From positions 1-64,000 of the forward strand of contig JANQQJ010000028.1 of the NCBI GenBank assembly GCA_028284945.1: a stretch of 64,000 nucleotides of DNA, in the 5' to 3' direction. The notes below the pieces were generated by a model, which did not search any database, was not told the DNA's origin, and worked only from the letters and a program-made list of their open reading frames with translations. The position numbers and the translations under genes are program-made. Numbering within the stretch: position 1 is the first letter of the stretch; each line of letters starts with the position of its first letter. Positions 31,837 to 35,534 of the stretch are shown piece by piece. Origin of the DNA: Alphaproteobacteria bacterium. Its GTDB lineage: Bacteria; Pseudomonadota; Alphaproteobacteria; SMXS01.

Positions 31837-32829
31837 ATGTATAGTCTTCAGATAACAGTCTTATCTGCCGTCTTCATGGCAATGGCACTGTCACTGTCGG
31901 GTATCGGACCGGCGGACGCGCAAATTCGATACTCCTGCGGCACAGCGCCGGGGCCGCTGCGGGCCATCAGTAACGACGTTGTTCAAGAGTGCAAGATCGA
32001 GGACCTGACCCAGCGGCTGATCGAATATAGCGAGGCCTCCCGCTACTACTTCTGCCGGTCGGATCTGGCCCGGCGGGAACGCGACCAGAACTACGACGAC
32101 ACGACTTACAAGCTCGTAAATGCCCAGATTACGTCGGCGGAGGCGTCGATCAATGCAGCGGCTTCGCTCTATATGCAAAAGGGTGGTTTTGGCCAACGGA
32201 TCAAAATCCTGAATCAGCTTGGTGAGGCGGTGGACAACATAAAGTCCGCCTCGGAGACCGCGTCGAAAGGTTTCAGCGCCTCTGAACAAGCCGATGAGTT
32301 TCACCGCTTGGGTATGAACGCACTGCACCAGGCAAACAATGCTGCAAAAATCCTCGAGCAGTGGAAAACAAGAAGAGACGCAGGCGAAGACTGCCCGCCC
32401 TTTGAAGAAGAACCGTTTGATCCTTTTGATCCCGAGAACGAAATCTCAGAAGAAGAAGCCCTGGGTGGCGACGAGGAAGAGAGTGATCCGGATGATCCAT
32501 TCTCACCGGAAAACGAGATTTCCCGCGAAGAAGCGTTCGGTGACGACAAGCCCGCCGGTGACGAGGTCATCGGCACCTATTCCGGTTTCGGGATTACGGT
32601 CGAGGTGCTGGCGCGGGGCGCCATGCGGGTCACCAGCAACTGTCAGGAAGATGACCACCGCATCCAGATGCAAGGCATTATCGACGGGCAGGTCAAGGGT
32701 ACCTGGCAAGCCATTGGCGTGGGTGTGGGGCAAGTGACGGTTTCGCCGCCTCAAACGCGCGACTACCAATTCCGCCGCCGGTGCGATCAGGACTTCAGCG
32801 GTGCTGTGATAGTGCCGTTCAAGAAATAA
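31837..32829 (+). CDS. secreted hypothetical protein with acidic repeats
   Basis: A 330-residue exported protein, unknown family. Signal peptide ends near PADAQ; ggagg precedes the ATG. Residues ~45-190 are helical (possible coiled coil). Residues ~195-245 are strongly acidic and contain an internal duplication, PENEISEEEALG and PENEISREEAFG. The last ~85 residues look like a small beta domain beginning GTYSGFGITVEVLARGAMRV with two cysteines. The acidic linker could bind calcium. It lies between the thiolase and a block of other secreted proteins. Confidence 0.7.
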   Translation: MYSLQITVLSAVFMAMALSLSGIGPADAQIRYSCGTAPGPLRAISNDVVQECKIEDLTQRLIEYSEASRYYFCRSDLARRERDQNYDDTTYKLVNAQITSAEASINAAASLYMQKGGFGQRIKILNQLGEAVDNIKSASETASKGFSASEQADEFHRLGMNALHQANNAAKILEQWKTRRDAGEDCPPFEEEPFDPFDPENEISEEEALGGDEEESDPDDPFSPENEISREEAFGDDKPAGDEVIGTYSGFGITVEVLARGAMRVTSNCQEDDHRIQMQGIIDGQVKGTWQAIGVGVGQVTVSPPQTRDYQFRRRCDQDFSGAVIVPFKK

Positions 32830-32865: not shown

Positions 32866-33384
32866 TCAATCGTCACACTCTCCGTCCGGGGAATCGTAGT
32901 GGATGTTGAACTTCACGCATGAGCTTTCCCGCATATCCCCTGCTGGAAATTCGTAGGTGTGAATGACGTCCGGTTCCCAGGTGTAGGGCTCGCGTGCGTG
33001 AAAGCGATACGGACACCCCGCGGGTACTGTGAATGATCGCATCATGGGCGGGTTGCCTTTGGACCTTGTGTGCCCATTGCTGACAGTCTTTGTGAAAGGA
33101 TTAACTCCGTAGCGGTTCAGCACGGTGTCTGTATCCGCACTGCACCAGTCATCAAGAGACAGGGTGACCCGGTCAAGCATTGTGTTGCGGTACTCCCGCG
33201 AAAAGGAATTCCAGTGTCCGGAAACGTCCTCAATCTGCAACGTTAGCGTAATACACTTGAGGTCATTGTCTTGTACGCACTCGATATAGACTTCGTGCTC
33301 GTTGTCTGCCGCAAATGCCGAACCGGCGGCAAGCGTTGACAAGGTGAATACCGCTACCGCGGTCTTGGCAAACAAATGCCTCAT
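32866..33384 (-). CDS. secreted hypothetical protein, cysteine-containing
   Basis: A 172-residue exported protein, not recognised. The ATG at 33384 is chosen for its gggag eight bases upstream; the signal peptide ends SAFAAD. The mature part has six cysteines (IECVQ, KCITL, DWCSA, GCPYR, SCVKF, GECDD) and is rich in aromatic and charged residues, fitting a disulfide-stabilised extracellular domain. It is transcribed in the same direction as the cysteine-rich run to the right but is not obviously homologous to it. Confidence 0.68.
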   Translation of the reverse strand: MRHLFAKTAVAVFTLSTLAAGSAFAADNEHEVYIECVQDNDLKCITLTLQIEDVSGHWNSFSREYRNTMLDRVTLSLDDWCSADTDTVLNRYGVNPFTKTVSNGHTRSKGNPPMMRSFTVPAGCPYRFHAREPYTWEPDVIHTYEFPAGDMRESSCVKFNIHYDSPDGECDD

Positions 33385-33684
33385 GGGTTGAACTCCCTTT
33401 TTGCCCTCTTCAGACCCGTTTCGCGTGACTGCGGACCGGCCCTGAATTTCCAAGACATAGGGACTTAACGAAATCCCGCAAGAGTAAAAACAACCTTAAG
33501 ATGTATACCATAATAATCTTTAAGTTGTATGATGACTTCTTAGACTTCTACTTCCAGTGGCCTGACAACGGCGACACACGCACCTTGTCGACTAGGCCTG
33601 CTGAATCACTTAAGTAGTCGACGCGCCGACCATCGATGGCGGCGTGGGCTGGGCCTTACTTCAACCGGCTCCCGCCGGCACGGA
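33385..33684. other. intergenic region with AT-rich imperfect hairpin
   Basis: These 300 bases separate two minus-strand secreted-protein genes. An imperfect inverted repeat, caaccttaagat (33491-33502) with atctttaagttg (33516-33527), sits in an AT-rich stretch that is a candidate promoter region for the 33384 gene. No open frame with a ribosome site is visible. Confidence 0.4.
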
Positions 33685-34110
33685 CTACCCGCAACTCACC
33701 TTCTTGCAGCGGCAGAGTTTAAGGAATCCTTCCTTGCGGCAGGTCACGCAACTGTCCTCACGGCCGTCCACATCAGCATGTTTCTGGTCGCCGACCATGC
33801 CGCGGGCCAGGTGCGAATACATACAGACTTCGCCCCCATAACCATGGCTTTTCAGATTGAGCGTCGGCGCATATGAGCCAGGTGCAACGACGATCACATG
33901 GTCGGTGCACAAGGTCTCGGTAATGTCGCCATCTTCATTGGGCGCCCAGACGTGCACCTCCGTGTTGCCCAGCGCGTTATGGGTGCTGCAGTCGTGATTG
34001 AAGATCGTGATCGAGCCGGCCATGGCAGAGGGCACCGCCACCGAAGCAGCGATTCCCATCACCACTAGGACGATAAAACGACGCGCGACGTTGCTTAAAG
34101 ACCCGGCCAT
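33685..34110 (-). CDS. small cysteine-rich secreted protein, tandem family member 3
   Basis: A 141-residue exported protein. Signal peptide ends SAMAG, then SITIFNHDC. It shares with the next two genes upstream the pattern of NxxC near the mature start, a central C(T), then CxYxHxARGM, a GxEDxxVTC motif and a closing LxxCxCKK. The mature domain is ~110 residues with eight cysteines, six shared by all three. No known family recognised. Its ATG is one base after the stop of the upstream paralogue, so the genes are co-translated. It is the last gene of the operon that starts with the lipoprotein at 35534. Confidence 0.72.
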   Translation of the reverse strand: MAGSLSNVARRFIVLVVMGIAASVAVPSAMAGSITIFNHDCSTHNALGNTEVHVWAPNEDGDITETLCTDHVIVVAPGSYAPTLNLKSHGYGGEVCMYSHLARGMVGDQKHADVDGREDSCVTCRKEGFLKLCRCKKVSCG

Positions 34111-34111
34111 G

Positions 34112-34513
34112 TCAGTTCTTGTTGCAGTGGCACATCTTCAGGAAGCCCTGCTTGCGGCAGGTAATCCGTGCATCCTCGTTACCCTTAACATCATCGGCAT
34201 TGGACCCACCGACCATGCCATCGGCAAGATGCAGATAGTCGCAAACTTCGCCTTCGTGATTATTGACCGCCAGATCCACGGTCACATAGCTGTTGGCGCC
34301 GACGGATACGGACTTCTCTGTGCAGGTCCGGTTTTCCGGGATCCCGGCCTGGTTGGTTGCCCGGATATGAACCTTGGTGCCATCACGGTTCCTTTTGGCT
34401 CCGCAATCATGGTTATAGATCTGCATTGATCCAGCTATGGCGGGCGGCGTGACGCTCACCAAAGCAAATCCGGCAAGCAGGACAATGGTGAGAGACTTGA
34501 TCAGCGTTCCCAT
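34112..34513 (-). CDS. small cysteine-rich secreted protein, tandem family member 2
   Basis: A 133-residue paralogue of its neighbours. The start at 34513 gives a proper signal peptide (MGTLIKSLTIVLLAGFAL) ending PPAIAG; a longer frame begins inside the upstream gene. The mature part reads SMQIYNHDC, then TCTE, EVCDYLHLADGM, GNEDARITC and LKMCHCNKN. It is the family member most like the one at 33685-34110. Five bases separate it from the upstream gene. Confidence 0.72.
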   Translation of the reverse strand: MGTLIKSLTIVLLAGFALVSVTPPAIAGSMQIYNHDCGAKRNRDGTKVHIRATNQAGIPENRTCTEKSVSVGANSYVTVDLAVNNHEGEVCDYLHLADGMVGGSNADDVKGNEDARITCRKQGFLKMCHCNKN

Positions 34514-34518
34514 AACAT

Positions 34519-34944
34519 TCAATCCTTCTTGCAGCGGCACAAGGCGCCGTCTAACTGGCAGGTCACGCTGGTGTCTTCGTTGCCGTTGATGTCACCTTCG
34601 TTGATCACCAGCATGCCGCGGGCATAGTGGTTATAGGTGCACAGGAAATCCTTGCCCTTAGGGTGAAACAGGCCCTGCCGGTGGCAATAGGCTTTCACAT
34701 CGATCCGCGACTTATAGGTCTTGCTTTCCGTTTCGCCCCAGGCCGGCAGGTCGTCCTTGCGGACCAGATAGCTGCCATGGGTACAGCAGTAATACTGGTT
34801 TGGATCGCCGATCTGGATATGGACATCCGGGTTGCCGCAATTCTTGTTATGGACGGTAATGGACCCGGCAGTGGCGTTTGGGATGGACCAGGCGCTTGCG
34901 ACCAAGGCCAAACCAATCATGAGGATAAAGCGTTTCATTTTCAT
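34519..34944 (-). CDS. small cysteine-rich secreted protein, tandem family member 1
   Basis: A 141-residue paralogue. Signal peptide ends NATAG, then SITVHNKNC; the distal half reads FLCTYNHYARGM, GNEDTSVTC and LCRCKKD. It differs from the other two by a longer middle (~20 residues between the second and third shared cysteines) with two additional cysteines. aggag precedes the ATG. The three genes look like products of local duplication followed by divergence. Confidence 0.72.
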   Translation of the reverse strand: MKMKRFILMIGLALVASAWSIPNATAGSITVHNKNCGNPDVHIQIGDPNQYYCCTHGSYLVRKDDLPAWGETESKTYKSRIDVKAYCHRQGLFHPKGKDFLCTYNHYARGMLVINEGDINGNEDTSVTCQLDGALCRCKKD

Positions 34945-34961
34945 GGTTCTCCTGCTTCCGG

Positions 34962-35534
34962 TCAGCTCTGATCCAGCGGGTGCTGGACCTCACACTCATT
35001 AAGCGCGCTAGAAATCGCGCTGATCACGTCTTCAGGGGCATCTGGTGAAATGCCCGCGTGGGCGCCTTCTTTCTCGACATGCTCATGCGGCAACACTTCT
35101 TTGAGCGCCGCGATACTGCAGTCGCAATAGTCGTTGTGACCGGTATGGAGCACGCACTCATTCCTGAAATAGGCCAGGTGATCCACGGCCTCATCCGCCT
35201 GCTGGTCGCGGACTTCGTTCAAATGCTCCTGCTCGCACGCAAAGGCGGCATCGGACACGGCGTCGTGCACATCATCCGGCGCCTCCATGGAAATTGATGC
35301 GGTCCCATCTTCGCCCACATCGACATGTTCGGGCGGTAGGTGCGTGTGAAGCGCGTCTATGCCGCATTCGCAGAATGCTTCATGGCCAGCCTCATCGAGA
35401 CACTGAGATTTGAACGACGCAACATGAGCGTCGTTGTGCCCCGATGCATCCGCGCTCGCATCCGTCGCGGTATCATCATTACCGCAGGCAGCCAGCAATA
35501 AAGCGGCTGCGCCAAAGGCCAAATACCTGATCAT
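34962..35534 (-). CDS. lipoprotein with duplicated cysteine domain
   Basis: A 190-residue lipoprotein: hydrophobic signal with lipobox LLAAC, so anchored by a lipid on the cysteine at ~17. The mature part holds two copies of one ~60-residue unit: the first has CLDEAGHEAFCECGIDAL, HLPPEHVDV and FACEQ; the second CVLHTGHNDYCDCSIAAL, VLPHEHVEK and NECEV. Each copy has four cysteines and several histidines, possibly binding metal. It is first in an operon with three cysteine-rich secreted proteins (17-base gap). Family unknown. Confidence 0.75.
   Translation of the reverse strand: MIRYLAFGAAALLLAACGNDDTATDASADASGHNDAHVASFKSQCLDEAGHEAFCECGIDALHTHLPPEHVDVGEDGTASISMEAPDDVHDAVSDAAFACEQEHLNEVRDQQADEAVDHLAYFRNECVLHTGHNDYCDCSIAALKEVLPHEHVEKEGAHAGISPDAPEDVISAISSALNECEVQHPLDQS

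What the first reader, a model, noticed from the sequence alone, without database searches (positions are those of the whole stretch)
33685..35534. Operon of a lipoprotein and three cysteine-rich secreted paralogues of unknown family
Four genes with gaps of 17, 5 and 1 bases encode only exported proteins. The three small ones share NxxC, CxYxHxA(R/D)GM, GxEDxx(V/I)TC and LCxC signals but are diverged, so they are a local expansion. The lipoprotein is separately duplicated. Such an arrangement suggests an undescribed secreted system: effectors, metal scavengers, adhesins or defence peptides.
Basis: partly seen in the sequence, partly recalled or inferred. Interest (0 to 1): 0.62.

Follow-up and report, generated by a model that had tools for sequence, protein, structure and literature searches.

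The report
Species-specific exported cysteine-rich protein operon
The operon is real: it encodes a lipoprotein and three related small exported proteins with six shared cysteines, from a family found only in this one bacterium among several hundred genomes searched; their job is unknown, but they look like diversifying surface or secreted binding proteins.

Summary
On the minus strand a lipoprotein gene (35534-34962) is followed, with gaps of 17, 5 and 1 bases, by three diverged paralogues (34944-34519, 34513-34112, 34110-33685), each with a signal peptide and six shared cysteines. The same genome has a second array of three intact paralogues plus a decayed remnant 130 kb away, and a distant single copy on contig C2. 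I found no relative in 384 other class genomes, 397 phylum genomes (overlapping samples), GTDB contigs, viral contigs, phages, plasmids, Pfam, NCBIfam, PHROGs, PADLOC or PDB. One AlphaFold model (pLDDT 84.5) is all-beta with no confident fold match. The lipoprotein is two tandem copies of a 72-residue CxC domain, with two single-domain paralogues in this genome only. The second array has no lipoprotein, so operon conservation is unproven. The gene just downstream belongs to a second orphan exported cysteine-rich family with an array on contig C10, beside a third such family and a ricin-type lectin. Best reading: a lineage-specific birth-and-death repertoire of small disulfide-stabilised exported proteins, probably binding proteins or effectors acting at or beyond the envelope. 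Activity and release from the cell are untested.

The parts
34962..35534 (-). Lipoprotein (190 aa, lipobox LLAAC, Gly after the Cys); two tandem copies of a 72-aa domain with C-x9-CxC...C and conserved His
   Evidence: domain copies at 35435-35220 and 35189-34977
34519..34944 (-). Small exported Cys-rich protein W1 (141 aa; six family cysteines plus an extra pair)
34112..34513 (-). Small exported Cys-rich protein W2 (133 aa; six cysteines); ATG at 34513
33685..34110 (-). Small exported Cys-rich protein W3 (141 aa; six family cysteines plus an extra pair)
33460..33477 (-). Weak terminator-like hairpin between the operon and the next gene; the number of such sites is near chance
32866..33384 (-). 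Next gene downstream, same strand: member of a second, unrelated orphan exported six-cysteine family (F2) with seven copies on contig C10 and one on C13; probably a separate unit
   Evidence: unrelated to the trio family by hhalign

Best explanation
The operon encodes members of a lineage-specific, fast-diverging family of small (about 100-120 aa mature), all-beta, disulfide-stabilised proteins exported by Sec signal peptides, probably co-transcribed with a lipid-anchored partner built from two CxC domains. The family grows by tandem duplication and decays (birth and death). It is one of at least three unrelated orphan families of this style in the genome. Most likely mechanism (inferred): the cysteine scaffold holds variable loops that bind ligands such as glycans or surface proteins of other cells, so the products act at or beyond the envelope as adhesin-like or effector-like binding proteins, and the lipoprotein anchors, chaperones or protects. 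Shown: genes, signal peptides, cysteine scaffold, paralogy, arrays, remnant, absence elsewhere in the sampled genomes. Predicted: beta fold, disulfides. Inferred: binding role, release from the cell, lipoprotein function.
For: Seven copies plus a decayed C-terminal remnant, all in one genome. Six cysteines are kept in all seven while the rest diverges to 25-58% identity. Additional cysteines come in pairs (total counts 6, 6, 6, 6, 6, 8, 8), as expected for disulfides. dN is well below a near-saturated dS, so the proteins are under purifying selection. The AlphaFold model of a paralogue is all-beta, 10 strands, pLDDT 84.5, pTM 0.75. Two other unrelated orphan exported Cys-rich families form arrays on contig C10, beside a ricin-B lectin gene (PF00652, E 6.8e-13). 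Loops differ in length between paralogues.
Against: No homologue of known function, no significant fold match, no binding or expression data, no conserved operon. No positive-selection signal can be measured because dS is saturated. Four of the five AlphaFold models scored only 60-69, and the alignment had seven sequences. Products may stay in the periplasm.
Confidence: 0.4

Rival explanations
1. Periplasmic or outer-membrane envelope proteins with an internal role (stress, envelope stability, substrate capture), not acting on other cells.
For: Signal peptides take them only to the periplasm; no T2SS GspD reaches the cut-off in this genome; the partner is a lipoprotein; the flanks are ordinary catabolic genes.
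Against: Absence from all sampled relatives, arrays and a decayed copy are unusual for core envelope functions.
Confidence: 0.28
2. Antagonistic toxins (bacteriocin-like or aimed at eukaryotes), with the lipoprotein as immunity or delivery partner.
For: Lipoprotein directly precedes the exported trio; arrays of diverged paralogues; weak, non-significant fold resemblance to membrane-binding domain 4 of cholesterol-dependent cytolysins (TMq 0.33-0.45, E 0.07 or worse).
Against: The second array of three has no lipoprotein gene beside it, and the lipoprotein paralogue on C2 sits by a secretin gene instead. No PADLOC or significant PHROG match. Fold hits are below any usable threshold.
Confidence: 0.15
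3. Metal scavengers or metal-binding proteins.
For: Histidines in the small proteins (CxYxH); each lipoprotein domain keeps four cysteines and three invariant histidines.
Against: Cysteine counts are even and extra ones come in pairs, fitting disulfides; the one near-conserved histidine is missing in the C2 member; no metal-related genes were seen next to the arrays.
Confidence: 0.1
4. Thaumatin-like or osmotin-like minimal proteins, binding beta-glucan or similar.
For: The N-terminal TIxNxxC strand resembles the thaumatin start (recalled, not tested); thaumatin-like proteins and a GH64 domain appear among the structure hits.
Against: E 0.11-0.55 and TMq 0.19-0.37; no Pfam match; half the size and a different cysteine pattern.
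Confidence: 0.07

Closest known systems
Tandem expanded families of Ca. Ichthyocystis (PMC4943182)
   Same: Lineage-specific families of hypothetical proteins in a bacterium, mostly in tandem arrays (up to 47 adjacent members), proposed there as virulence factors
   Different: Those families are listed as putative membrane/hypothetical and reach tens of copies in an intracellular fish pathogen; here seven small signal-peptide Cys-rich proteins in a bacterium of unknown lifestyle. No sequence comparison was made
MAX effectors of phytopathogenic fungi (PMC4624222)
   Same: Small secreted beta-sandwich proteins, disulfide-stabilised, highly diverged, lineage-expanded
   Different: Fungal, six-stranded with one conserved disulfide; no homology shown; used only as an analogy
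Thaumatin-like proteins / GH64 fold
   Same: All-beta, cysteine-rich, exported; weak fold hits
   Different: Not significant, about twice the size, different cysteine pattern
Domain 4 of cholesterol-dependent cytolysins
   Same: Compact beta-sandwich; TMq up to 0.45
   Different: E above 0.05, no sequence motif shared, no pore-forming domains

Membership tests
Any Pfam or NCBIfam family | Score above curated cut-off | tested here: not met
   Best hits E 0.011 or worse, all far under the cut-offs
Thaumatin-like / osmotin fold | Significant fold match | tested here: not met
   E 0.11-0.28, TMq 0.33-0.37 for the thaumatin-like proteins 7p23 and 2ahn
Cholesterol-dependent cytolysin domain 4 | Significant fold match and pore-forming domains | tested here: not met
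   E 0.07 or worse, TMq at most 0.45; proteins are single small domains
Anti-phage defence system (PADLOC) | PADLOC model match | tested here: not met
   0 families
Bacteriocin with lipoprotein immunity | Killing of sensitive cells, neutralised by the partner | not testable with these tools
   Needs bench work
Lineage-specific tandem array of exported orphan proteins | Paralogues in tandem, restricted to one lineage, with decayed copies | tested here: met
   limit: no same-genus genome was held
Lineage-specific tandem array of exported orphan proteins | Export beyond the cell | not testable with these tools
   Signal peptides only; no T2SS GspD over the cut-off, three other secretins in the genome

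The most novel reading that the evidence does not exclude
This bacterium maintains a fungal-effector-like repertoire: several unrelated families of small exported Cys-rich beta-proteins in birth-and-death arrays, served by a family of CxC-domain lipoproteins, one of which sits beside an orphan secretin, for contact with hosts, prey or competitors.
Probability: 0.22. Interest if true: 0.72.

Novelty: new variant of a known kind. Interest (0 to 1): 0.42.

Why it matters
If the reading is right, a probably environmental alphaproteobacterium carries species-private arrays of disulfide-scaffolded exported proteins similar in style to fungal effector sets. That would make the origin and use of orphan exported proteins in bacteria directly testable in one genome.

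Tried and rejected
Sequence families: Pfam, NCBIfam, PHROGs, PADLOC, none. PDB by sequence, only E 0.28 or worse. GTDB contigs with one protein and with the second-array trio, viral contigs, plasmids, phages: none. An alignment of all six was too variable for a pattern scan. First AlphaFold job, on the C2 copy with signal peptide, was poor (pLDDT 44) and was not used. Fold searches gave nothing significant; cytolysin, thaumatin and minor-pilin hits were considered and set aside. Homology of the trio family with F2 or F3 was tested and not found. dN/dS is uninformative on positive selection because dS is saturated. Promoter scan: none found; terminator counts near chance.

Full report
What is there. 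On the minus strand the window holds a lipoprotein gene (35534-34962) and three small exported proteins (34944-34519, 34513-34112, 34110-33685) with gaps of 17, 5 and 1 bases. The upstream neighbour on the same strand, an SDR-like gene (named by eye), ends 75 bases before the lipoprotein start. The next gene downstream on the same strand starts 300 bases after the operon, with a weak terminator-like hairpin between them. GC and third-position GC of the four genes lie at the lower side of, but overlap, those of neighbouring genes.

Paralogy. The three small proteins are homologous far above chance (z 13-39 against shuffles). Invariant features across all seven members are six cysteines and a few other residues (N37, T73, Y97, A101, G103, T117 in the C2 copy). 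Additional cysteines appear in pairs in W1 and W3.

The family in the genome. A search of the whole genome found a second array of three intact paralogues on the same contig (L007:6672-7082, 7094-7531, 7554-7949, plus strand; about C23:164.7-165.9 kb), a decayed C-terminal remnant just upstream (C23:164374-164547), and a distant single copy on contig C2 (50346-50741). No further copies came up at E up to 10. The window trio separates from the second trio with moderate support (83/89), which fits two local expansions.

Outside the genome. No match in 384 other genomes of the class or 397 of the phylum (the two samples overlap), in GTDB species contigs, viral contigs, plasmids or phages. The nine same-family genomes gave no match to the window's first small protein. 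No same-genus genome was held, about half of GTDB 232 species are held, and no metagenome scan was available, so 'species-specific' means 'not found in what could be searched'. A ClpB fragment from the genome best matches Azospirillum plasmid-borne ClpB (76%) and then other alphaproteobacteria, so the host is most likely an alphaproteobacterium.

The lipoprotein. It is an internal tandem duplication of a 72-residue domain with four cysteines (C-x9-CxC...C) and three invariant histidines. Single-domain copies lie on C2 (57731-57270) and C7 (16533-16961), and no full-length match was found among 239 other class genomes (one 20-residue hit at E 0.0085). The C2 copy is upstream of a secretin gene on the same strand, about 130 bases apart if the secretin starts at its lipoprotein signal (PF00263 E 6.9e-33). 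The C7 copy is divergent from another small exported protein. The link between lipoprotein and exported proteins is suggestive but not consistent.

Structure. AlphaFold of the mature paralogue L007:7614-7949 (C23, second array) with the seven-sequence alignment gave pLDDT 84.5 and pTM 0.75, ten beta strands. The other four models scored 60-69, so the fold is only moderately supported, and the window's own proteins were not folded separately. No PDB or viral match is significant (best E 0.031 and 0.016).

Context. The downstream gene (32866-33384) belongs to family F2, with nine copies in this genome: seven on contig C10, one on C13 and this one, and none in 336 other genomes. The C10 island (about 99.4-108.9 kb) also holds four copies of family F3 (none in 142 other genomes), other exported Cys-rich genes and a ricin-B lectin gene. 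The three families are unrelated by profile comparison (the weak A6-A7 hit is the signal peptide). The genome therefore shows a repeated pattern: small exported Cys-rich orphan families in tandem.

Mechanism. The pattern fits a birth-and-death repertoire of disulfide-scaffolded exported proteins whose variable loops bind something outside the cytoplasm. Binding, release from the cell and targets are inferred, not shown. Envelope housekeeping is the main rival. Published parallels are the tandem arrays of Ca. Ichthyocystis (PMC4943182) and, as analogy only, fungal MAX effectors (PMC4624222).

Verdict. Observation confirmed; interpretation partly supported; a new orphan family in a known style of genome organisation; moderate interest.

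Noticed in passing
window 32866-33384 (-); L051:5067-9995; L052:5282-5770: Second orphan exported six-cysteine family (F2), nine copies in this genome, none in 336 other class genomes.
   Followed up: partly
L051:2420-11919 (C10:99.4-108.9 kb): Island of at least 13 small exported Cys-rich genes, including four F3 copies, with a ricin-B lectin gene among them.
   Followed up: partly
L028:1472-3139 (-): Lipoprotein-type secretin gene directly downstream of a single-domain paralogue of the window's lipoprotein; not GspD by the curated cut-off.
   Followed up: partly
L029:5560-5937 (-); C7:14613-14876, C7:13582-13704; C13:46295-46636: Another small exported family with an 80% identical partial copy and a further fragment nearby, suggesting recent duplication and decay.
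   Followed up: no
window 31837-32829 (+): Exported protein of 330 aa with an acidic repeated segment (DPFDPENEISEEEA / DPFSPENEISREEA), no significant Pfam match.
   Followed up: no
L016:5865-6221 (+): Small exported Cys-rich ORF just upstream of the C2 member of the trio family.
   Followed up: no
L007:4130-5211 (-): Three adjacent similar genes that look like YCII-type small proteins by eye; not tested.
   Followed up: no
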